The notes beneath the pieces were generated by a model, which had not been told where the DNA came from, made no database searches, and was given only the letters and a program-made list of their open reading frames with translations. From NCBI GenBank assembly GCA_001599915.1, contig BCIG01000033.1:124001-188000 (forward strand): a stretch of 64,000 nt of DNA, in the 5' to 3' direction. Of the stretch, positions 25,404-51,352 are shown piece after piece. The position numbers and the translations under genes were made by a program. This DNA is from Symbiotaphrina buchneri (Eukaryota; Ascomycota; Symbiotaphrinales; Symbiotaphrinaceae). Position 1 is the stretch's first letter. Each line of letters opens with the position of its first letter.

Positions 25404-25641
25404 AACATTTTACTTCTTTACTATCATAACGGCGTCAGGGTAGGCAAAACCAAGGTGTCACACCGGCGTTGCATTGTCACATAACAGGAATCTAGGATTT
25501 GCTAGTCATTGCTCACAAACAAGAATTGCAATTCGAGTGCTCTATAACCTTTTCATTGTCGATGGAGAAACGCCGATGATGCTATGCTAGGTATCCGAAT
25601 ACGTTGTCAATTCAACGTATCAACGTTGTCAATTCAACGTA
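25404..25641. other. short 3'-3' spacer IES1/YTM1
   Basis: 238 bp between the convergent stops. It contains the first copy of a 22-bp tandem duplication that runs into the YTM1 stop codon (see the repeat entry). Overlapping 3' untranslated regions are likely. Confidence 0.5.
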
Positions 25642-31489: not shown

Positions 31490-33627
31490 ATGTCTCTGCC
31501 CGGTGTACCCAATGTGAAGTAAGTTATCTATCCGTACAATAAAGAGCCGCCATCACGACCACAAGAATATACAGAAGCTTATTATGATGCATCAACACAT
31601 AGTGAAGAGTCTCTTCCCAGCCATGAGGAATTCAATGCCTTGGCCGCGAAAGCAGGCCTAGTCATTCCCGAGCGCCATGTTGAGGGCTTCCGAGTCCTGC
31701 TCGGCGGCCTGGACCAGTGCGCACAGACCGTCATGGGAATGGAGGGTCCGGCAGCCCCTTTTCAACCCCTGAAATTGTCTTTCTGGAAAAACAATTTCTT
31801 GACTTACACCTGACAGACTACGTCCCGAAAGTGGACTTTGAGAAGTATCCCAGAACGGATATCCATATACCAGAGGACACAGATAAAGGCGGTTGGGCGA
31901 CCAAGGTAGATCATTCTCCCTTCTGCAACGCTGCACGTCGGCTCTAACAGGTTAAAGGTCACGGCCAAAAGCACTTCGCCGACTAGCGATCTCTTGAAAG
32001 ATCGGACGGTAGCATTGAAGGACAATGTTGCGCTCGCCGGTGTGCGGTGCACCAACGGCAGTGCCGCGGTTGAGTGGACTCCAGATATTGTAGTGCCAAT
32101 CGGATCATCTCTCGGGCAGGCACTAATGCATACAGGACGCAACGATAGTGACCAGCATCATGGATGCTGGAGGGATCATCACAGGGAAGGCAGGTCCGTC
32201 TAGCTTTCCCTTGAATTGTGTTTAGACCCCTTGCAGGCAGCTGTCCGCCTGTCTGCTGCCGAGAGGACCAGACGTGTTGACTATGTGTGACAGCTTGCGA
32301 GAATTCCTGCTTAGGAGGTTCAATCAGCGACACGGCAGTGACAGGACCAGTGCATAATCCCTATGCGGATGGGTACAGTTGTGGCGGCTCTTCCAGCGGG
32401 AGTGGCAGACTGGTGGGTTCAGGGGCAGTGGAAATGGCCATCGGATGTGATCAAGGAGGGTAAGGTCAACATCGGAATGTACTTGCGGATCAGCCACTGA
32501 CACCATTGCAACCAGTTCCATCCGTATTCCTGCGAATCACTGCGGAGTAGTCGGCTTGAAACCAACATTTGGCCTTGTACCGTACACCGGCATCGTCAGT
32601 CTAGAAGCAACCATTTATCATGCAGGACCAATGGCGAGGACCGTCGAAGACTGTGCCCTCCTTCTGGAGGCAATATCAGGTGCAGATGGACTGGATGATC
32701 GCCAGCCAATCGATATCAAACCCGGCTCTCTCAATTTTGATGAAGGGGTTAAGGCTTTCGTGACGAACAAGTCAGCTCACGAGCTTTTGAAAGGCGTCAA
32801 GATTGGCGTTCTGGAAGAAGGCTTCACATACGCTGTGCCGAATCCCAGTGTCAACGCCTCAGTCATGAGTGCTATCGAGAAGTTCAAAGCACTGGGGGCC
32901 GAGGTTAGCACTTACTCGATCCCACTTCATGCCGAGGCAGCGATCATATGGATGGTCTCCTTGCCAATCGCTGGAATGAGGCAAGGCCTGCTGGGAGATG
33001 TGACTGGTCGGAAGCAGTTGTACATGGCAGACCGCTTGCCCAAGGGCGGGTCACTATCGCAGGCGGCGTTCGACGCATTAGGGCCGGGCGGCCAGAACCT
33101 ATATCTCAGGGGCTTGTTCCTGGAGCAGAGATATGGGGCACAGCTGCATGCTCGTGCAAGCAACCTGCTCAGGAAGGTCAACGTAAGTAATACAGGGCTC
33201 TTTCATTGCCACTGTTCGACGGGGCTGATGCAGGGCTGATCCGAACCTTAGGACGCATATGATCAAGTATTGAAGGAGTACGATGTACTCGTCATGCCCA
33301 CCTCACCAGTGCCGCCTCGGAAACTCTTCCCTCCCTTTGAGGAGGTCGGTCCTTTGCAACGGCTGTCTCGGACGGCTGGATACGTATACAACACCTCGTC
33401 ATTCAATGGTAGGTCTACTTCCCGCCATGGCCGTCCTCATTGCTGACCTGTGATAAGCCACCGGTCACCCGGCACTGTCACTGCCCGTAGGTTTTGTGCC
33501 CGCAGAGGATGACGATACCATCAGACTCCCTCAGGGAATCCAGATCGTAGGGCGTAAGTTCGAGGACCTGAAGTGCCTGCAAGTGGCAGCGGCCTGGGAG
33601 AAAGTGTACAATTGGAAGGAGTCATAG
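31490..33627 (+). CDS. amidase-signature family hydrolase
   Basis: Fungal amidase of the acetamidase-like group. Exons 2-9 (31621-31745, 31817-31905, 31958-32089, 32136-32193, 32294-32459, 32516-33182, 33252-33408 and 33458-33627) join cleanly. The catalytic Ser-cisSer-Lys triad is intact: lysine in KDRTVALKDNVALAG, cis-serine in YSCGGSSSGSG and nucleophile in GCDQGGSIRIPANHCG. Family blocks PRTDIHIPEDTDKGGWATK and TGHPALSLPVGFVP also fit. The 5' end is uncertain. The ATG at 31490 (MSLPGVPNV) is followed by an in-frame TAA at 31520-31522, then open protein-like sequence (YPYNKEPPSRPQEYTEAYYD). A GTAAGT donor at 31519 and TTCCCAG acceptor at 31620 would skip both and give 530 aa. Otherwise the N-terminus is damaged by a stop. 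The donor at 31746 (GTCCGG) is also weak. Confidence 0.8.
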
Positions 33628-34432
33628 TAGCTACCGGACCATACTGTTGAGCACACCTACATACATAGACCGTCTTCGAGAATAGACCGCTGTTTCCCAC
33701 CCAGAAATGCGCCTTGAGGACTGCAATGACCCGGAAAGAGCCGTATTTGCCGTAAGACGGGTGGGAAGTTGAAGTGCAACGAGCCCTGCCCTCCAGGAAT
33801 TGAGCGCCTTCCACTGCCCATTGTTTCAAAGTGAGTCAGTGCCTCAGGACATTTGTTCTGCCTTTTAGACCGCGCAGAGTAGTTTCAGCCTTGCGATGAG
33901 GGAGTCAACATCGTCGACTGTCGCCTGTATGCCTTGCTTATGTAAAGGGTGCCAGGGGTTGGTGGTCGGATTACGAGCAGGTGTTCGACAGCCACGGCTG
34001 GACAGATATCTGCATTGGGAAATCGAGCATTCGGCGGCCGAGTTAGAGGCCTCCTGCAGCCCTGAAATGTTCACGATGTGGAATATATGGAGTATCTAAG
34101 TTTTACGACAGGGCTTAACTGGAAGCCTGCCCCTTCACTAAGGTAAGCGTGCCCACCGCCCAGCTTCCGGCCGTAGGAGCAACCCAAGCTAGAAATTAGC
34201 CCCGTGGCTTAGAAGAATGACATCTCCTCAGGTATACGAGGAGGCTCTATCGAGGCTCTGTCGAGGCTTAGAACTACGGCTATGGGAGGGGTTGGAAGCC
34301 CTTCTCTGGTCATCGTCTCGGAGGCCTTGATTGCCGCACCGTGGCCTTGAGACTGGCGGCCATGCTGGGCTATGTCAGAGGGGATTGCCACCATCGATGA
34401 CAGAGACCGTCTCAATGGTAGCTTCATAACAT
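33628..34432. other. intergenic, amidase 3' to first tiny gene
   Basis: About 800 bp without a recognisable gene. A degenerate GAGGCTCT(A/G)TCGAGGCT repeat lies near 34240-34270. Both strands have short open frames without family features. Confidence 0.4.
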
Positions 34433-34440
34433 TATTTAAA
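34433..34440 (+). promoter_or_regulatory. TATA-like box of tiny gene A
   Basis: TATTTAAA, followed by GGAGG, located 176 nt upstream of the ATG at 34616. The second tiny gene has TATATAA followed by GGAGG in a comparable position. Confidence 0.5.
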
Positions 34441-34615
34441 GGAGGTGGTGAGTCGCGACACAAGCTATTTCTCTTTTCCAACCATCAATCAGAACTACAG
34501 ACGGACTATCACCTGCATTGCCCAGCGTACAGTTGGCATACACTCAACAAACTTCAAACTCTTTTGCATTTCTCGATAGAATAGCACAGAGACTTCGGGT
34601 GTTATAAACATCGCC

Positions 34616-34770
34616 ATGCAGTTCGAGATCATCCAACGAACTTCCACCCCAATGAGGGACTCGACAGCCGCGCTACAGTCCAAGCCGAAGGAACCACGGC
34701 CCCCTAGAGAAGGTATGTTAACCACTGGGCAGGGTGGCAAAGCAATCAGTAACGAGGCGTGATAGGTTGA
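34616..34770 (+). CDS. tiny peptide gene A, C-terminus RPPREG
   Basis: A candidate 33-residue peptide that I do not recognise. It begins MQFEIIQRTS and ends KEPRPPREG. Exon 1 is 34616-34712 and ends AGAGAAG at a GTATGT donor. A 53-bp intron (branch CAGTAAC, acceptor GATAG at 34765) leaves exon 2 with only the last two bases of the glycine codon and TGA. An alternative acceptor at 34828 would give GLAKR before the stop and would align the following AGCCAAACG with gene B. A TATA-like box and a 5' leader free of long ORFs precede it. No signal peptide is seen; the C-terminal half is rich in K, P and R. Support comes from similarity to gene B: 16 of 18 bases at the exon end, same intron phase, same C-terminus. 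Too short for ordinary gene finders. Confidence 0.5.
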
Positions 34771-35643
34771 TCATACAAGACCCTGGGGACCTATGCAGAA
34801 AACAGATGAGTCTAAGCCGCAATGAGAGGACTAGCCAAACGGTGAGCGGACGACAGGGACTAGTATGACGTGCTTCCGTCTGACATCATGGATGAAGGCT
34901 TCGAGGACATTAACATGGCCACGATGATGGCATAACTGCACCGAGGGGCCATTGCAACGCCAACAGAGGTCCAGACTGCGGTGGCTGCGGAAGGGGTTAA
35001 GGCGAGGCGGCACGCCAAGCGATGAGCTATCAGGGGTCAGGCGTCAGCACTAGCCACAATTGTATGCCTGGGAGTGAGAGAGGGGATTTTGAGTGGAAAA
35101 GGCCGCAAGACAGGCGCAACTTAGACTGATAGCCAAATATTCGTACCTGTACCGCGTAGCAGGAAAGATGAAAAATCACTCAATTCTGCCTATCACACGC
35201 TGGTTCCTGACGTGGTCTTGGATGGCACAACCCGCACTACTGCAGGTACAGTGCAGGTACAGTGTGCACATGAGACAAAAATAAAAAAATGAAAAAAGTG
35301 CAGTCCGAACCCATGACGAAGCCACAGCCCCGTAAAGCCAATCGCTATCTGCCTGGCGGCCTGGTAAGGCAATTGATATCGATCACACGTAATAGTCTTC
35401 GGCTTGGACAGGACAGCGAACAAGAAGAGAACCCAAAAGGAACATTCGGCAAAAGTAATAGCTCAGAGAAGACAACCGTAGCCGTGCGAGCTGCGTAAGC
35501 TTGGTGGACAGAACCCCCCTAACGAGCAGTGTGGCTGCGCGAAATATGCGATGCGCGGATGCGCGAAAAACAGGCACTGCGACTCCCAAATGACTCAAAT
35601 AAGACGGATGTATAGAGAAAGGTACAAGTCAAGTACCCAAGGG
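34771..35643. other. intergenic between tiny genes A and B
   Basis: About 870 bp. It includes the short AGCCAAACG match to the gene B 3' side (34834-34842) and otherwise no recognisable gene. An AT-rich, A-run-containing patch lies at 35270-35300. Confidence 0.4.
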
Positions 35644-35650
35644 TATATAA
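35644..35650 (+). promoter_or_regulatory. TATA box of tiny gene B
   Basis: TATATAA followed by GGAGG, 135 nt upstream of the ATG at 35785. The leader between them is A/C-rich, as in many fungal 5' untranslated regions. Confidence 0.6.
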
Positions 35651-35784
35651 GGAGGACCATGGGCCTCCATGGTTTGACCCAAAAATTCCCCAATCACCTG
35701 AGCGAGGAAAGTCATACATCGACGCAAAGAAAACCAAACGAAACAATTCATACAAGACCTGTTCTCCTCTAGCCATCAGCCAAG

Positions 35785-35935
35785 ATGGCTTTCTACCGTC
35801 CGCCAAATGGGCTAGCACTGGGGAAGAACCCCAGGCCCAATCCCAACCCGGACCGGCCTCCAAGAGAAGGTGAGCAATGACTTAGAGAAAAATAAACCTT
35901 CGAGATATACAGAGCTGATATACTTTTTAGGATAG
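35785..35935 (+). CDS. tiny peptide gene B, C-terminus RPPREG
   Basis: A candidate 29-residue peptide, family unknown. It begins MAFYRPPNGLALGKN and ends NPDRPPREG. Exon 1 is 35785-35869 and ends AGAGAAG at a GTGAGC donor. A 61-bp intron (branch GCTGATA, acceptor CTTTTTAG at 35930) leaves exon 2 with the last two bases of glycine followed by TAG. The ATG context CCAAGATGG is good for a fungal start, and a canonical TATA box lies upstream. The peptide is rich in P, N and R with no hydrophobic segment, so it is probably cytosolic or nuclear. If unspliced, it would gain only two residues (EQ) before a stop. See gene A for the shared features. Confidence 0.55.
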
Positions 35936-36679
35936 CCAAACGCTCCACGAAACATCTGATCGACAACTCAATGCATTGGATGTAACAACAAATTGCACCG
36001 ACCTAGCCGCAGCAATGCAACTGCTGGGGGAAAACGAACCGGGGGGTGGGGGAACAGAGGAGAACACCAAAATTGTGGCTGTACCTCACCATTGAGATTT
36101 TTTCCCTTTTTTTTTGTTGCTAGATGAGACACCGCGATAGACTGCTTGCTTTAGACTTGTTGTTTTCGGGCGTTTGTGGGCGGAGCGTCACTAGAAGTTA
36201 GATGGAGGCGCAGCAAGGTTTCCTGCCTCTTGGGATCATTCAGGCTGCGCAATAGGCTGTTTGGGCGCAGCATACAAAAATGATGCAAACTCATGAACAA
36301 ACACTGCCCCATAGTGAGCCATCGTAGCAAAGAAGGCATCAATGCCATGCGAATTGCATCGTCGCCCGATTCTTGACGACGAGCATCGGTCTTGCCTGGT
36401 GTTGATGGTGTGTCGTTGCGATCCTGTTGCATCCATAAGCTAAGTAGGCGATGTAACCTGTGGCTCGTGTTGTGGCTGCTTTGGCGGTGGCTGTGATGGT
36501 AATACGAAAAATACGGAACTCCTTAACAAAATGAAGAACAAGTCGCAGCGGCCCACTACGCAGTTGCAAGGCTATCTACAGCATGACATGTCGCGCATAT
36601 AATGATTGAAGCTTGGAATACCATTTAGATACCATGATTATATGACGATATGGTGTTGGAACCTACTCTAACGCCACCG
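35936..36679. other. intergenic downstream of tiny gene B
   Basis: Holds a polypyrimidine run TTTTTCCCTTTTTTTTTG near 36100 and minus-strand open frames at 36151-36436 that look partly protein-like but lack a motif or a convincing exon structure. No gene is called. Confidence 0.35.
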
Positions 36680-36961
36680 TCAACACCGGTCCCATGAGAG
36701 AACGAACGCATAAGCTCCCAGCGCCATACGAACAACAGTGCCCGTGCTACGCAGGTGCCTGCCTGAACACCGCCGAGAGTGCAACATATCATGCATGTAA
36801 CTTGCGTCCAAGAAGCGCCTCCTCAGTGCTCGTGTAGGTATCAACGATAATCTCCAGAAAAAGAAAACCACGAACACCGCCCAGGAAAAGATCAACGCCA
36901 TGACCACGTCCGTGACCGTCTGTAGCACTTCAAGTGCTAGGTTAGTGGGAATACTCATTGT
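36680..36961 (-). CDS. possible small membrane protein
   Basis: Open frame of about 93 residues starting MTTMSIPTNLALEVLQ, with one strongly hydrophobic segment (VVMALIFSWAVFVVFFFWRL) followed by a basic stretch (RALRRRFLDASY). It begins only about 100 bp beyond the ATG1 stop on the same strand, so it may simply be ATG1 3' untranslated sequence. No homologue is recalled and there is no splice evidence. Confidence 0.2.
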   Translation of the reverse strand, partial: TMSIPTNLALEVLQTVTDVVMALIFSWAVFVVFFFWRLSLIPTRALRRRFLDASYMHDMLHSRRCSGRHLRSTGTVVRMALGAYAFVLSWDRC

Positions 36962-37060
36962 CGTTATCATATCATCGCTAGAATAATGAATAAAGAAGAA
37001 AAGCCTAGCCGCATTGGGCCTGGAGCTGCCGGAAGCCCGCAATTCATTAACATCACTTGT

Positions 37061-40000
37061 TCAACGAGGAGGGGTTGTGCCGACCGAAGGAACACCTGTT
37101 GCAGCAGCGGAGGGCGTCCTGGAAGGCGCCATTGGTTGTTGCATTGAAGTACGCTTCAACATCGCCATCTTTTTCCGTAGAGCAGCAAGGCGACCCCGGA
37201 TACTGATCACCACTGGCGAGATGTCAGCAAAAGGTCCACGATATGTTTGATATGAGAGGAAACACTCACTCTTTTCCACGACCTCCCTGTCTTCAGCTTC
37301 CAGACCATTTATTGGGCCTCTGTCGGCCTTTGACCCCTCTTTGCCGTTCATGCTGCCTTTCCTGGAAGCGCTGGGCTCTTCGTCACTTTCCAGGACAGCC
37401 TCAAGCATCCTTTGGGCGGTAATGTAGGCGATCTCGCAACCTGCTAAATCCTCGCCCACCAACTCATTTACTGCTGCAGCGCGACTCATCTCCACCGCTC
37501 TATCGTACATTAGCCGCTCTGCCGTAACACCTGAGCTCACAAAAACGCCATCAGCTGACGTGCCCAGTTCTGCGGCGGACGCGGATGCGGCAGGATGGTT
37601 GCTCGGATGGCTGGGGTGATCCACGGGCAAGCGATTCTGCGAGTCGATCAACTTGCGACGGACAAACTCTGCTTTCTCCAAAACTTCGTTGAAACGACCG
37701 CGCACCCATTGAACGACATTGTTGATGCGAGTACCAACTGCAACACCGGTCGGAGAGGTGACGTCGGTCCGCGGGGCTGAATGATCTATCACCTCGCCCC
37801 GATTCTTACGAGCCCACCACGCTCCAGCGACATCCATCGACTTGGCCAGCAGTGACAGAGCCTTAACATAGAGCACCAGGGCTTCCTCTGAGAGTGTGAC
37901 TGTGGCGTCCACAGTCAAGCCCTCCTCTTCTTGGTCTCCTGGATCTACCCCAACTTGCCGGAGTCCAAGGCCATGCTCGATTGACGGCGCTAGAGGGATA
38001 AGCTGCTTGTATTTCACTTCGGCAAAGCCATAGACCACATCACTTCTGGTAGCTAGCTCCTCAATCACGTGGATCGCCTTGGAATCTTCGCCCAACGGAA
38101 TGGTCGTCTTACCATCCGTCGTCACCAGACTACCCTGAGTGGTCGGATATGCAGGATAGCCATATAATTGAGGAGGCGACTGCGATTTGCCTCCGAGCGG
38201 TGGTGAGAATCCCATTCCAAACAGACGGAAATCCGCCATATTCAACGCCTTTGAGATTGCCGACGTAGCAGATGTCGGGCTAGCTCCATAACGTCGTTCA
38301 TATGAACCCTTATGTTGTTGTCCAATTTCCGGCCGCTGTCTACCAGTGACAACTTGCATGGCCCTGCTAGGGGATGCTTGCATCCCAGAAGGACCATTTC
38401 CGCCCCCAGATACAGTAGCTCTCCGAACCATAGCCCCTTGCTGTTGTTGAGCTGGGTCGTTGTACCCTCCACGTAAACGCGGGTTTGCAGCCAGCTCATC
38501 AGCGAAGGCATTCACTTCAACGGCACGCTTTTCCACAACAACATAGTCCCGCTCGAAAGCAACTTCCTGGGCCGCTTTGTCTTCATCTTCGTTGGTGGCT
38601 TTCGCTTTCTTAAGTCCGGTCTGCTGCGCTTGCTGCTTCTCCTCATTACGGAATTGTGCCCTGACTTGCACTTGTTCCTTCAAAAATGACGACCCGGGCG
38701 AAGGCGTATTGCCACTGGCCTGTCGCTCCATCGCAACCGCTGCAGCAACTGGTGGGCGCTCGGGATAGGTCTCCTGACGGCCAGGTGCAGTGACATGCGA
38801 TATCATGGCGGGTCGGCGGTAGGGATCTGGCGAGTCGCGCTGACCACGAGACGATGGGCGTGCGTTCGCAATCTGCCCGCTATAACGCCTAGCTTCTGGC
38901 ACTAATTTGCCTGGATTATCGGAACGTTGACGAATCATAGGAGAGGCTTCAGGTCGAGCGGTGGGTGCTGTGTAAAATCGATCTGGCGGTGATTCGGATT
39001 GACGAGCGTTTTCTTGCCGCGGCTGCTTCATGGACTCTGAGGAGGTTGGTTCCACCCGGAGCTCGGTCGCCTGGGCATCTTCAAGCTCTTGTGACACTTT
39101 CGAGCTTGGCCTAGGCTGGTCCACAGGTCTGTCTTCGGCCACAAGACCTGGTATATCGTCTTTCACAACAGGATCATCAAAAAACTCCTTGAAACCGACA
39201 CGTTCAACAGGACTCCTCTTCAGCAATGCCCGAATCAGTTTCTTCATGTCAGCAGTGAGGACAATTTCTTCCGGAAACTTGATCCTGTCTTCACCCTTCT
39301 CAATCCTGCGTAACAGCTCCACATGATTGGAGGCTCGGAAGGGGGGCCGTCCCACTACCATCTCGTAAAGTACGGTACCGACAGACCAAAGGTCAGCTTT
39401 GGCGTCATACTTCTCGTACCGCAAAATCTCGGGAGCCATGTAGAGCGGTGAGCCGCATAGAGTCTCAGCTAGAGAGGTAGAAGGTAATGACCGGGCGAAG
39501 CCAAAGTCAGCGATTTTCAGCATAGGCAGTGACTCCACTCCAACAACCGGCACCAAAGAATTCTCGCTGGCCGCCAGAGGCATCAAGTCTGGTTGTGTCT
39601 TGGCAAAGAATAGAGGTGACGGATTCAAGAGCAGGTTCTGAGGCTTGACATCACGGTGGATGAAGTTCTTTGCCCGAAGGAACTCTAGAGCACTTGCCAG
39701 CTGCTTCAGGAAGTGACGTACGACCACTTCGTTGAGACCGCCTCCAGGAGGGTTGGGATATTTCTTCACCATCTCCGCTGTAGCCGGATGCCCGGATAGC
39801 TTCTCACGCTTCTTGATGAAGTATGATAGGTCGCCCAACTGACAAAATTCCATCACCAGGTGGATATGGTTGGCGGACTCTTGACAGTCAATCAAAGCCA
39901 CGATATGGGGATGATGGAGGCCTTTCAGGATATGGATTTCGGAGTAGAGATTCTCTTTGAGCTTCTTGTTGAGCTTTTGTAGCTGGACGGACTTGATTGC

Positions 40001-40292
40001 TACGTATGCGCCCTTCTTCTGTGGCGGGGAGTCAGCACCAGCCCGGGTTGAAACAGAATGATAATTCATCATTATGCAAAGACCATACAGCGTGGAACGA
40101 AATATAACAAGGGTTTGTTTAGCACGCGGAAGGAGACGGCGGATAGTCACATACCACGTGTCTGGCCTTGTAGACAGTAGCAAAGCTCCCCTTCCCTATC
40201 TCTTCCATCCGTCTGAAAGCACCTATCGTCACTTCCCCTTGCCCAGGCTCTCGAGGCCTCCTCGGGACGGGTTGAGGTTGTGCTGTCGCCAT
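37061..40292 (-). CDS. ATG1: autophagy serine/threonine kinase Atg1
   Basis: Initiating kinase of autophagy (ULK1 homologue). Exons 40292-40155, 40018-37270 and 37212-37061, about 1012 aa. Exon 1 ends in the glycine loop ([19 protein letters not shown]) and exon 2 begins [20 protein letters not shown]. Kinase motifs: [16 protein letters not shown] (catalytic loop), [11 protein letters not shown] (DFG), [13 protein letters not shown] (activation loop and APE). A long S/P/Q-rich linker (about 370-640) follows, and a C-terminal tMIT-type region begins near [19 protein letters not shown]. Intron 2 (37269-37213, 57 bp, GTGAGT, CTGACATC branch, CCAG) is a multiple of three and stop-free, so an unspliced frame stays open; the spliced form gives [16 protein letters not shown]. 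Start choice follows the family N-terminus. Confidence 0.95.
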
Positions 40293-41880: not shown

Positions 41881-43010
41881 AACCACTCCTTCGGAGTGGT
41901 CAGGGGGTTTTTTATCTTACTAAGCAATTTCACATGATATCAAGTAGGAAAACTATAGATATTAAAGTAAATAAGAAAACAATCACAATTGATGTTGATT
42001 TATAGTAAGAATAACTATAAGATAATTTACAGGCATGTATTTACTTAAAAAAAAATAACCTTTTCTTTAGATAGGTAAGTTTTATACATATTCCTGCAAT
42101 CTATTGCAGTCTATCATAGACTATTTATCTAAAGATTCTATAGTATCTAATATCTTATATATAATATTATATATTATAATAAATAGATTTTAACACTTAT
42201 AAATATATTTAATAAACATTGTAAAAGACTTCTAAAAAGGGTATTATAATGTTAAAAATGTACAGATATTATAAAAGCTAGATTAAAAAAGTATAATTAT
42301 ATAAAAGAAAACAAAGTATTTATAATAGTAAATAATAGTTCTTATAATAATATAGTTTACCTTTGATTTAAAATAGTTAAATCCTTTTTATATTTTACAG
42401 ATAATTATCTGTTATATAGATATAAAATATAAAAGTTATTATATTATTATATTTATAAATATATTGATAAAATACTTTTATTTTACTGGTTAAAACTATG
42501 TATAACTTTTGTAAAAAGATAGGTATTATATTAAATAATTATAAAACAATATTTTTTTATAATAAAACTAAAAATCTAATAAAATCAAAAAACTATTAAA
42601 AACATATTTTATTATCTAATATAATGTATTATAATATTGATAAAGAATATTTATACAACTGGTAAAATATTTAAATATGTTAATATAATATTTAATCAAT
42701 CTAAAACATTATTATGCTAATTAAAACACTTTTTAAACTTATCTTTTAACTTAGTTAAAAAAAGAAAGATTTTTCTTAGGTTTATATAGGATAAGATATA
42801 TAAATAAATTATTATTAACCTTTAATTATAAACTATTTAAACTTAAAACAGTATTTATATAAATAGGTACAGTTTTTTAAAGGTTATAAAAGATAAGATA
42901 TATAGGTAAAACAGGGTTAATTACAGTAAGTAACATAATTAAAATAGTTAAAATAGCCTAGTCAAATAAAACAGACTATATTCTATACTGTCCTACAGCG
43001 TAAACAAGTC
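41881..43010. repeat. extreme AT-rich block, probable RIP-altered relic
   Basis: About 1.1 kb composed almost entirely of A and T (especially 42120-42720), in sharp contrast with the balanced composition on both sides. No reading frame of note exists. Such islands in Pezizomycotina usually come from repeat-induced point mutation of an old inserted repeat. The element family cannot be read any more, and I see no convincing terminal repeats or target-site duplication. The left edge carries a perfect 8-bp hairpin, ACCACTCC-TTC-GGAGTGGT, at 41882-41900, followed by a GGGGGTTTTTT run. Confidence 0.75.
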
Positions 43011-43479
43011 TGTTAAAAAGATTCAAAGGTTAACATTAGGCAGATTAGGTTGAACAAGGCTGTACAACGCTGCAAGAACACAGAACAGGCATGAAAGAAA
43101 GTTACATACGCCCTTTTTTTGTTTTTTATTTTGATTTTCCTGCGTAAGGGGTTGTGCCGACAGGTCACGTTACTGCCATTCTTGGCGGCTTGGCGTGGAA
43201 CACATATTTTTTTGTATAATAGATGGCAGCTTACAAACATCAACGTCCGTTGTTTTTAATGTAGGAATGGATGTAGACCATGCTCATTAGATTACAGTGT
43301 TAGACTCAGGGAATGGCTTGCAGAGAATCAATTATCATGAGCTTGTATATACCTTCATCACCAGAATGCAAATGTGATCCAAAGTATGCTATGTGCGCCA
43401 AAGTCATCCCCAATCTCTTCCCTCTACTGTCCATAAGCCAAAACGCCACGCTCTATGCATCAGACCTCCCTTTATGCTA
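43011..43479. other. spacer between AT-rich block and SEC59
   Basis: About 470 bp, moderately AT-rich, with T-runs near 43110. It probably contains the SEC59 3' untranslated region. No gene visible. Confidence 0.4.
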
Positions 43480-46336
43480 TTATATGTCCAAACCTTTAAC
43501 CAGTAGCCACAAGACTACCGGTACAATCACGTTATCGTTGCCTCCAGTCAGGACGGCCTCTGTGAAGCTCGCCCCGCTAGCAGCTATCAGGGCTTTACCA
43601 AGCGTAATAGTAAGGCAGTCACCATTGTCGCCGTTCCAGCCGCCTATACGCAGCCACAGCTTTGCCGTGATCAAACCAGCCGTCACAGCAGCCGCAAATG
43701 CGGCGCTGCCTTCGAGACTTTTTCCGCCGGCCCACGGCCACTTTCTCCTGCCAAATCGCCGCCCTATCAAAGATGCAGCTGCGTCGCCCATCCCAACGCA
43801 GATGACTCCGCTGACCATGCAGACGTTGCGAGAAACGACTTCCCAACCTTCCCAAGGGGCATCCCCCGCACGGTCTATACCGGCGAGAGACAGCCAGAGA
43901 GGGATAGCACAGCCGATGAGGAGAAAGATGTGCGAGACCACCACCGGACCGCGAAGATCCCGCCCATCGACGTAGGGAGTCAGGAAATAAGCAAGAGGCT
44001 TCGAGATTGGAGGTAGTTGCGAGGCCCGGAAGAGGTCAAGTAAAAGGAAGATGGCCAAGATCAGCTCCAAAGCAAGGGATGCAAAGGTAGGGTCGACGAA
44101 TACGGCGGGTAGTAACATGGTCACCATCATGCCATGGAAGATCTTTCGCCTAGTGTCCACCTCCACGACCGTGGTAAGACGCAGAACTGTCGCCATACCA
44201 ACGATTAGGATGCCTAGCCAGTAACTGCAGATGAGAAGTCGAGTGTTAGCTTCCCCGAATTCGTCCCGCCGAAGGTGCTCAGCCCAGCCCAAATGGCACG
44301 ATTTATGCGCAGCAAGTCCGTCTCGTGTTGGCAGAGGGATCCACCAGGTGAGCCTCCACCTTCTCGTCCAGTTTCTGAAGGATGGAAGATCTCCAAAGAG
44401 ATAACCGAGGGCCCACCCAACTGGATCATGCCCTCCCAGCGCATATCGGGCAACATAGCCCATGATTCCCACAAGAGTGATAAGTACAACCATGAAATAC
44501 ACATAAGCGGCATACATCCACTTTCGAAGTTTGGCTTGAGTGGGTGTGAGTGATAAATAAGCACGGAAGGCTGATGGAGGAGACCTTTGTCGGCGTGGCT
44601 TCTGATTCGGCTTCTCAGAGCTTCGTGGATTGAGAATATCACGAAACGTAGACAGGGTATGTCGTCGACGGTGGGTTTGCGTATGGTCCAAAATTGCCTT
44701 CGAAGGGCCTGTGGGTGGCCAATTCTCGGACTTCGTTCCGTTTTCTACTGCGGACTTCGGCTCTGTCAATAAGAAGCCATTCTGCTGGTGGTCTCCTTTT
44801 GGTATTTGCAGGATGCCAACATTGTGAAGTGAGCGTTGTCTGGCCCTCGCCTTGGTCGGCAATGCCTCTTCCGGGCTACTGCTCTCGCTGTCATCGGAGT
44901 CCGCAAATTGTAGCAAGCCAGTGGTCTTAGCTTGCAAAGACTTCCGCAGCTGTTGCAGGAAAGAGTTCGTCGTCGACACCATCTTCACCGCCCGCCTAAA
45001 CCGCCATTTTGGTACTCGTGCTAAAGTTACACCCCATTCGAGCACATGTCTGCAGAAGACGAAAATGCTGACGCCCCCAACCCATAATAATGCTTTTAAA
45101 ATTTCGGCTTGAGGAGAGGAAGCCAGTAATAAAAGATTGATGAGTGCAACTGATAATAACTGCAACTCTGCCGGCAGTAGACTCGTTGTAGTCAAATAAT
45201 GCAATGAACTTGATAGTGCTTGGTGCAAAGGGTATAGAAATGGAAGAATGTCAGGCCAAATGCGTCTAGTGGGTATATTTTGCGTTAGGCCACGTTGATG
45301 GTCATGATTCGAAAGCCTGTGGGTGTCCGTCTCGGCCAGTGACAACAATGGCAATAGAGTGACCATCCAGTGTGTCATACTGAGCCCAGCCGTAGCAGCC
45401 AAGCCCGGTATAAGCTGCAGTGGTATGCATGAGAGTCCCAAAACCAGATTAGGAAGAAGGATGGTCGGGATTGTGGGCAGCAGAGAGACTGCCACATAGA
45501 GTGGAATGCAGAGAGGGTACAGGAGCGGCGCCGGATCGAAGACCGAAGGAAGACGCAAACTTCCAAAGTATTGACAGGACCCTCTTCCGGGTACACTGGT
45601 ATAGAATATCACCCTTATGGGATATAGTGCGAAAAGGACGAATATGACAGTGACGTACACCCAGAGCTCTACGGACGAAACCTTCAGTATAAGAGTCCAG
45701 GGAGACGAGCGCCGGTCGAGGAGTCTTACCATGGAGCCATGGGGTCGCTGATTCCTTGATCTCTTTTCCGGACAACACTGCGACCCCGATCCCACCCAAC
45801 AAGAATACTTCCGATACTCGTCGACCCAGCTCGCGACGCCTGCGCTCACGGAAGACCTGGGCTTGCTTCTGCTTATCATCTTCTTGCACTTGCCATTTAC
45901 GCTCCAAGCGTGGGTGACCGAGATTGAATTCTTTGTTCGCCTCCTGAAGCTGAGAAGGGGTGAGTAACGGGCTGTCTGTTCGATGCACATCTGCGCCTCG
46001 TGCATCCTTCAACCCCTTTCGAGGCCTTAATGGAGGAGCTGGCAGGCCCTGTAAAACACCAACTCTCTCATCATCCGCTTCCGTCCCACTATCAGAATAG
46101 GAAGTCGGCGTTTGGGCGCGACTCGTTCTAGAGCCTTCCTGGGCGTTCAACTGTTCACAGAGTGGAAGGTTGGGCACTGCAATCTTCTCATCGTGCGTTC
46201 GGTAAGGGTTTGAATCCCTTGAGAGTTCCACGCCTAGTTGATGGTAGGGATGGGGCGATCGTGATAGTTTTCGCAGACTTGAAGCCTCGACTTCATCCGG
46301 TGGCCCACCATCTGAATCCTGGGCATTGAGCGTCAT
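43480..46336 (-). CDS. SEC59: dolichol kinase Sec59
   Basis: ER polytopic CTP-dependent dolichol kinase for dolichyl phosphate synthesis in N-glycosylation. Exon 1 ends at 45730 and exon 2 starts at 45668: the 61-bp intron (GTAAGA, acceptor CCGTAG) joins TPWLH to ELWVYVTVIFVLFALYPIRV. The N-terminus is a polar cytosolic tail, followed by more than ten hydrophobic helices and a basic S/R-rich loop in the middle. The CTP-binding region is intact: VGMGDAAASLIGRRFGRRKW followed by AGGKSLEGSAAF, plus the family motif VDTRRKIFHGMMVTMLLP. A second intron of 75 bp (44299-44225; perfect GCTAACAC branch and CTGCAG acceptor, weak GTGCCA donor, in frame, no stop) is likely; with it the protein is about 906 aa, without it about 931. 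An in-frame ATG at 46453 would add 39 residues. Confidence 0.88.
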
Positions 46337-50900: not shown

Positions 50901-51312
50901 GCCTCAAATGTCGCGAGATGATCGACCTTTTACCGGTGCAACCGAAGGTTCCTGCTGCGGAATTTTGAGAACAGAGACTTGAAGACTGAAAAAGTTTCGT
51001 CGATCATTGACTAATAAGATAACTTCGAGATACCCCGATGGCAATTATCACTTAGCTACGGCATGCTTCCCGAATGCGTTCTAGCTGCTTTCTGAGCTAG
51101 AAGGGAGCCCAGACCGGATGAAGTTTCGGCACAGCTCCTACTGCCAACCAGCTCGGATTTCTCGGGGCTAGCAGCATGTTGCGTTGCCTTTCCGTTCCAC
51201 GATGGTAGCCTGATCCATTTCGCTGCGAGCGAGAGGCTTTTCGAGCAAGTTCCACGTAAAAGTAATCGTTCAATGCACAACTTGGCTGTGAAGGGCGCGG
51301 CGTGGGACCACA

Positions 51313-51352
51313 GTCGCGTTCCGCCCTGTCGCGTTCCGCCCTGTCGCGTTCC
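51313..51352. repeat. 15-bp tandem repeat
   Basis: Unit GTCGCGTTCCGCCCT, two full copies (51313-51327 and 51328-51342) and a partial third. Located in non-coding sequence. Confidence 0.85.

What the first reader, a model, noticed from the sequence alone, without database searches (positions are those of the whole stretch)
34616..35935. Two neighbouring tiny genes with a shared exon end, intron position and RPPREG C-terminus
At 34616 and 35785 lie two short frames (33 and 29 codons). Both end exon 1 in a near-identical sequence (CGGCCCCCTAGAGAAGGT versus CGGCCTCCAAGAGAAGGT, 16 of 18 identical), both have a good donor at the same phase inside the final glycine codon, and both have an acceptor after which the frame stops at once. 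Both have a TATA-like box followed by GGAGG 135-180 nt upstream. The rest of the peptides differ, so the pair looks like an old duplication in which only the C-terminus and splice arrangement were kept. This would be a micro-peptide family that ordinary annotation misses.
Basis: partly seen in the sequence, partly recalled or inferred. Interest (0 to 1): 0.78.

Follow-up and report, generated by a model that had tools for sequence, protein, structure and literature searches.

The report
Tandem fungal micro-genes sharing RPPREAKR
Two tiny neighbouring candidate genes in a fungus share an eight-amino-acid stretch that appears only when an intron is removed at the same point in each, which suggests a pair of unrecognised micro-protein genes, although nothing yet shows that they are expressed or conserved in other species.

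Summary
The sequence is as described: two short ATG frames (34616, 35785), 16 of 18 identical bases at the end of exon 1, two good donors in the same phase, and TATA-like boxes with GGAGG upstream. In the 23.4-Mb assembly the 18-base motif was found only at these two places. A donor-end match this good is expected 0.0016-0.0045 times in this window.

One correction: the similarity continues across the intron. Acceptors ending at 34834 and 35935 are both followed by CCAAACG; 13 of 20,000 randomised sequences and 9 of 7,693 real donor pairs (this one included) do as well. The shared product is then RPPREAKR, with three silent base differences, not RPPREG-stop.

Against it: nothing outside the motif aligns, codon use is neutral, no family or RNA match was found, and no fungal relatives or transcripts were available. 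The two silent changes in the 18-mer are also silent on the minus strand.

I read the pair as probable old tandem duplicates making small basic, proline-rich peptides: a new member of a known kind, unproven.

The parts
34433..34445 (+). TATA-like box plus GGAGG (TATTTAAAGGAGG) of copy 1
   Evidence: promoter role inferred
34616..34712 (+). exon 1 coding part of copy 1: MQFEIIQRTSTPMRDSTAALQSKPKEPRPPRE plus the first base of the next codon
   Evidence: no ATG between the TATA-like box and this one
34697..34712 (+). exon-1 half of the shared motif (RPPRE + G), copy 1
34713..34834 (+). proposed phase-1 intron of copy 1 (122 nt), GTATGT ... CTAAG (A at 34815) ... CTAG; alternative acceptor ending at 34765 gives Gly-stop
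34835..34845 (+). exon-2 half of the shared motif (CCAAACG; AKR) and stop TGA, copy 1
35644..35655 (+). TATA box plus GGAGG (TATATAAGGAGG) of copy 2
   Evidence: promoter role inferred
35785..35869 (+). exon 1 coding part of copy 2: MAFYRPPNGLALGKNPRPNPNPDRPPRE plus the first base of the next codon
35854..35869 (+). exon-1 half of the shared motif, copy 2
35870..35935 (+). proposed phase-1 intron of copy 2 (66 nt), GTGAGC ... CTGAT (A at 35918) ... TTTTTAGGATAG; alternative acceptor 5 nt earlier (35930) gives Gly-stop
35936..35985 (+). exon 2 of copy 2: CCAAACG (AKR) then STKHLIDNSMHWM and stop TAA

Best explanation
Two small, same-strand protein genes from an old tandem duplication lie in the gap of about 3.4 kb between an amidase gene and a converging ATG1 gene. 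Each has its own TATA-type promoter, a leader of roughly 100-150 nt, an exon of about 30 codons, and one phase-1 intron that splits the shared motif RPPRE-AKR. The products are a 35-residue peptide ending in RPPREAKR and a 44-residue peptide with 13 more residues. They are basic, proline-rich and probably unfolded, with no signal peptide apparent by eye. The motif is probably the working part, a short binding or targeting element of basic nuclear-signal or docking type, and the rest has drifted freely. Shown: the shared sequence, its place on both sides of the candidate introns, its frame and its rarity. Inferred: promoters, transcription, splicing, translation, common ancestry and function.
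For: The 18-base motif was found 2 times in 23.4 Mb, both here (the degenerate RPPREG-donor pattern with one mismatch likewise). Of 30,460 same-strand GTRNG donor pairs within 1.5 kb in 264 kb, 5 reach 16 of 18 and only this one has same-phase ATG frames in both; 0.0016-0.0045 expected in this window. A gene model defined without the similarity (TATA-like box, first ATG, open frame, donor) fits exactly these two places in 264 kb under strict settings, against 0-2 in each of 10 randomised sets; the limits of this test are under evidence against. The similarity continues after the acceptors (CCAAACG; 13 of 20,000 randomised, 9 of 7,693 real donor pairs including this one). The eight spliced codons differ at three positions, all silent; three random changes are all silent in 1.9% of trials, and the two inside the block alone in 6.2%. 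Spliced peptides: 1 of 5000 shuffles as similar. Branch-point-like motifs lie 19 and 17 nt before the chosen acceptors.
Against: Codon use is neutral (0.9 and -1.5 bits), lower than the best minus-strand frame over each exon (4.8 bits each). No alignable DNA outside the motif. The remaining parts of the peptides are unrelated. CTAAG is an imperfect branch point. In copy 2 the nearer TTTTTAG acceptor would normally be preferred. Two upstream ATGs at 35659 and 35669 must lie before the transcription start. The strict gene-model limits were chosen after seeing the pair; relaxed, the model fits 6 and then 23 places, against 2-7 and 8-20 in randomised sets, and under the loosest rule 3 of 10 randomised sets also hold one same-phase pair. 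The finding was picked from a whole window. No relatives or transcripts could be examined.
Confidence: 0.45

Rival explanations
1. Coincidence: two chance short frames beside chance donors in non-coding DNA, picked out because a reader scanned 64 kb for anything repeated.
For: The 18-mer alone is unremarkable (59 of 500 randomised pairs as good). Codon use is neutral. Nothing else aligns. The gene model itself is about as frequent in randomised sequence when relaxed.
Against: Donor-linked match expected at most 0.0045 per window, with a second, separate match directly after acceptors in both and all differences silent.
Confidence: 0.27
2. Two related non-coding spliced transcripts, in which the shared bases are a splicing or RNA-protein element around the junction and not a peptide.
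For: Neutral codon use. The conserved bases sit at the exon junction. Copy 2 folds somewhat better than shuffles (z -2.0, 7 of 200 as good).
Against: All three differences are silent in the shared frame. Rfam has no match. Copy 1 folds no better than shuffles (z 0.03).
Confidence: 0.15
3. One gene with two alternative first exons: both exon 1 versions share phase and junction sequence, so either could join the exon at 35936, and copy 1's transcript would skip 1.2 kb.
For: Same phase and same exon end in both; interchangeable acceptors followed by the same CCAAACG.
Against: It needs an intron of about 1.2 kb in copy 1, and copy 1 has its own equivalent acceptor.
Confidence: 0.07
4. A minus-strand coding repeat (PSLGGR) in two minus-strand frames.
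For: The two differences of the 18-mer are also silent on the minus strand; the two minus-strand translations are as similar in 14 of 2000 shuffles.
Against: The copy 2 minus frame that carries PSLGGR scores -7.1 bits and meets a stop. It does not explain the donors or the matching post-acceptor bases.
Confidence: 0.06

Closest known systems
Conserved fungal small ORFs (Mat-Sharani and Firdaus-Raih 2019, PMC7394265; abstract, outline and passages seen)
   Same: Candidate protein frames of 80 codons or fewer outside annotated genes.
   Different: In the passages seen, their new predictions came from getorf plus sORFfinder with start-to-stop frames; frames split by an intron, as here, would be cut or missed (my inference). 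Their test was conservation across 31 genomes, which I could not do.
Fungal uORF peptides such as the arg-2 uORF and the amd-motif uORFs (PMC5640933, passages seen)
   Same: Short peptides; the nine 8-residue and fourteen 6-residue amd uORFs share a conserved five-residue end.
   Different: Those lie upstream of a main ORF; no frame above randomised level was seen downstream of either copy before the converging ATG1 gene (single frames only).
Mating pheromone precursors of fungi (from memory, no call)
   Same: Small genes; EA-KR resembles the spacer before Kex2-cleaved repeats.
   Different: No signal peptide apparent by eye, no repeated peptide, no CaaX end.

Membership tests
Functional microprotein gene (sORF-encoded peptide) | Conserved protein sequence between copies or species | tested here: inconclusive
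   8 of 8 residues shared by the two copies with 3 silent differences; no other species searchable
Functional microprotein gene (sORF-encoded peptide) | Coding-like codon use | tested here: not met
   0.9 and -1.5 bits; weak test at 28-32 codons
Functional microprotein gene (sORF-encoded peptide) | Transcribed, spliced and translated | not testable with these tools
   no RNA-seq, Ribo-seq or proteomics available
Tandem duplicate genes | Alignable sequence beyond a short motif | tested here: not met
   upstream peptide parts 1016 of 2000 shuffles
Tandem duplicate genes | Same strand, same intron position and phase | tested here: met
   both plus strand, phase 1, same motif split at the same base; the introns themselves are predicted
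Known protein family | Match in Pfam or in solved structures | tested here: not met
   Pfam: none for either exon-1 peptide (E up to 1) or spliced product (E up to 10). PDB: none at E up to 10 for the RPPREG forms, one chance-level hit at E 0.49 for the 44-residue product; the 35-residue product was not searched against PDB
Known structured RNA or snoRNA host | Rfam match in the gap | tested here: not met
   none at E up to 1 in 33600-37100
uORF | Main ORF downstream on the same strand | tested here: not met
   plus-strand frames in 33500-37200 score within the range of randomised sequence; spliced genes were not modelled

The most novel reading that the evidence does not exclude
Both genes keep two competing acceptors, one giving RPPREG-stop and one giving RPPREAKR. 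A duplicated micro-gene pair would then carry a conserved splice switch that adds or removes a basic AKR tail, and the peptide's C-terminus, not its body, would be the signal.
Probability: 0.08. Interest if true: 0.65.

Novelty: new member of a known kind. Interest (0 to 1): 0.36.

Why it matters
If true, it shows a class of fungal genes that both standard annotation and single-frame small-ORF scans would miss, because each frame is under 50 codons and its conserved motif is broken by an intron. The test used here, a match that resumes on the far side of an intron, needs no expression data and could be run on whole genomes. If false, it is a worked example of how far a chance repeat can look like a gene pair.

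Tried and rejected
RPPREG-stop as the conserved end: it needs acceptors ending at 34765 and 35930. Both exist, but copy 1's has no YTNAN motif in the 45 nt before it, and another acceptor pair shares 7 further bases.

A longer gene in the gap: the best single frames on both strands are within the range of randomised sequence; I did not run a full spliced-gene predictor. The gap matched only itself in a DNA search of the genome, so it does not look like a repeat or transposon copy.

A longer homology between the two loci: local and chained alignments at three gap settings are not clearly better than randomised sequence or other window pairs; the best case was 39 of 400 randomised and 40 of 397 window pairs.

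More family members: protein searches of the own genome find only the queries themselves. The uninterrupted motif with up to 2 mismatches gives 20 hits against 26 for the reversed control, so none stands out. A looser PPREG-donor pattern gives one extra place (L006); there the matching phase is open for only 4 codons upstream, with no ATG. A cytochrome-P450-like gene beside it was recognised by eye only.

The promoter pattern TATWWAARGAGGNSS gives 2 hits, one being copy 2 itself, against 5 for the reversed control; copy 1's box has one more base and does not fit it. TATA plus GGAGG alone is no evidence.

Literature: RPPREG gives 4 listed papers, none on fungal genes by title or abstract start. 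PPREAKR gives none. RPPREAKR, DRPPREG, PRPPREG and PPREAKRS together give one paper, unrelated by title. Small-ORF searches: (capped listings).

The species was not identified; it is a fungus by gene content (an ATG1 with both MIT domains) and by intron style (judged by eye).

Full report
Setting. The window is part of a 272,726-base contig of an unnamed 23.4-Mb genome in 82 contigs. Gene content is fungal: an ATG1-type kinase with both ATG1-like MIT domains at 37061-40195 on the minus strand, and an amidase exon within 32451-33239 on the plus strand, whose last exon appears to end near 33626 (read by eye). The finding lies in the gap between these two converging genes. That gap matched only itself in the genome, has no Rfam match at E up to 1, and its best single reading frames on either strand are within the range of randomised sequence. 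Randomised sequence in my scripts means first-order Markov resampling; peptides were shuffled.

The observation. Both frames, both donors, their phase and the 16 of 18 match are as stated. The TATA-like boxes with GGAGG lie 183 and 141 nt upstream of the ATGs. In copy 1 no ATG lies between the box and the start. In copy 2 two ATGs lie 15 and 25 nt after the box, so they would fall before a normal transcription start; that is inference.

Chance. The 18-mer alone proves nothing: a local match this good between two 500-bp stretches is reached by 59 of 500 randomised pairs, and by 12 of 124 evenly spaced window pairs, one of which holds the motif itself. What matters is where it lies. In 264 kb (the window plus twenty 10-kb stretches of the same genome), 30,460 same-strand GTRNG donor pairs lie within 1.5 kb. 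Five have 16 of 18 or better upstream of the donor and only this pair has same-phase ATG frames of at least 15 codons in both. Of the other four, three are a 7-base tandem array and one is a pair 428 nt apart without such frames. With any GT as donor, 18 of 2,200,021 pairs reach 16 of 18 and 7 of these have such frames; 15 of the 18 are at most 175 nt apart, two are 428 and 429 nt apart, and only this pair is wider. Taking matches between different stretches as the null (3 hits over all 5,466,471 GTRNG pairs, 1 over all 1,212,903 GTRNGY pairs), the expectation for this window is 0.0045 and 0.0016. These are not corrected for the many kinds of coincidence a free reader could have noticed.

Gene model. 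A rule that does not use the similarity (TATA-like box, first ATG at least 35 nt after it and 100-220 nt on, 25-45 codons, GTRNGY donor) picks exactly these two places in 264 kb, against 0-2 in each of 10 randomised sets. I set those limits after seeing the pair. With looser limits the rule finds 6 and then 23 places, against 2-7 and 8-20 in randomised sets. This pair stays the only same-phase pair within 1.5 kb; the randomised sets hold none under the first two rules, and one each in 3 of 10 sets under the loosest. So the model alone is not evidence; the pairing under the tighter rules is some.

The correction. Copy 1 has four YAG acceptors 42-130 nt after its donor and copy 2 has three. In one combination, introns ending at 34834 and 35935, both are followed by CCAAACG. 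Seven shared bases after any acceptor pair occur in 13 of 20,000 randomised sets and in 9 of 7,693 real donor pairs, this pair being one of the 9. A search for similarity anywhere in the first 130 nt, without asking that it follow an acceptor, is much less striking (39, 57 and 126 of 400 randomised sets at three gap settings); the force of the result is its position. Splicing there joins CGGCCNCCNAGAGAAG to CCAAACG and gives RPPREAKR in both. The codons differ at three places, all third positions and all silent; three random changes are all silent in 1.9% of trials. The third difference lies at the edge of the block, and for the two inner ones alone the figure is 6.2%. In copy 2 the nearer TTTTTAG would normally be favoured, so a mixture is possible there.

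Products. Copy 1: MQFEIIQRTSTPMRDSTAALQSKPKEPRPPREAKR. Copy 2: MAFYRPPNGLALGKNPRPNPNPDRPPREAKRSTKHLIDNSMHWM. As spliced peptides they are as similar in 1 of 5000 shuffles, as RPPREG forms in 12 of 5000, as exon-1 peptides alone in 72 of 5000. Upstream of the motif there is no signal (1016 of 2000). Pfam gives nothing for the exon-1 peptides or the spliced products. Solved structures give nothing for the RPPREG forms and one chance-level hit (E 0.49) for the 44-residue form; the 35-residue form was not searched there. Elsewhere in the genome neither peptide nor the uninterrupted motif recurs above control level.

Against coding. Codon use scores 0.9 and -1.5 bits for the two exons, while the best minus-strand frame over each scores 4.8. 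The two silent differences of the 18-mer are also silent in a minus-strand frame (PSLGGR in both), whose translations are as similar in 14 of 2000 shuffles. The minus-strand reading does not explain the donors or the post-acceptor match, and in copy 2 that frame scores -7.1 bits and meets a stop, but it cannot be dismissed.

What it most likely is. Two old tandem duplicates, small spliced genes for basic, proline-rich, probably unfolded peptides, with RPPREAKR as the constrained part. That the motif acts as a short docking or nuclear-type targeting element is a guess from its composition. I put 0.45 on the peptide reading, 0.15 on a related non-coding pair, 0.07 on alternative first exons, 0.06 on a minus-strand repeat, and 0.27 on coincidence.

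Prior work. A fungal small-ORF survey (PMC7394265; abstract, outline and passages) predicted new frames with getorf and sORFfinder; an intron-split frame would be cut or missed by start-to-stop scanning, which is my inference. Fungal uORF peptides with conserved ends are known (PMC5640933, passages), but neither copy has a detectable coding frame downstream. Full-text searches for the motif strings found nothing on fungal genes in the listings.

Noticed in passing
42001-44000: A strongly AT-rich block (GC 0.33 against about 0.50-0.52 on either side), perhaps a decayed repeat.
   Followed up: no
25601-25640: An exact 18-base direct repeat ACGTTGTCAATTCAACGT with inverted ends, copies 22 nt apart start to start.
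   Followed up: no
51312-51349: A repeat with 15-nt period.
   Followed up: no
35522-35881 (minus strand): A 120-codon open frame opposite copy 2 with the best codon score in the gap (12.3 bits over 35693-35881), still within the range of randomised sequence.
   Followed up: partly
34842: The motif in copy 1 is followed directly by a consensus donor (CCAAACG then GTGAGC), so a 7-nt micro-exon with a further exon cannot be excluded.
   Followed up: no
35931-36095: A 54-codon open frame starts right after copy 2's TTTTTAG acceptor, out of phase with exon 1; not explained.
   Followed up: no
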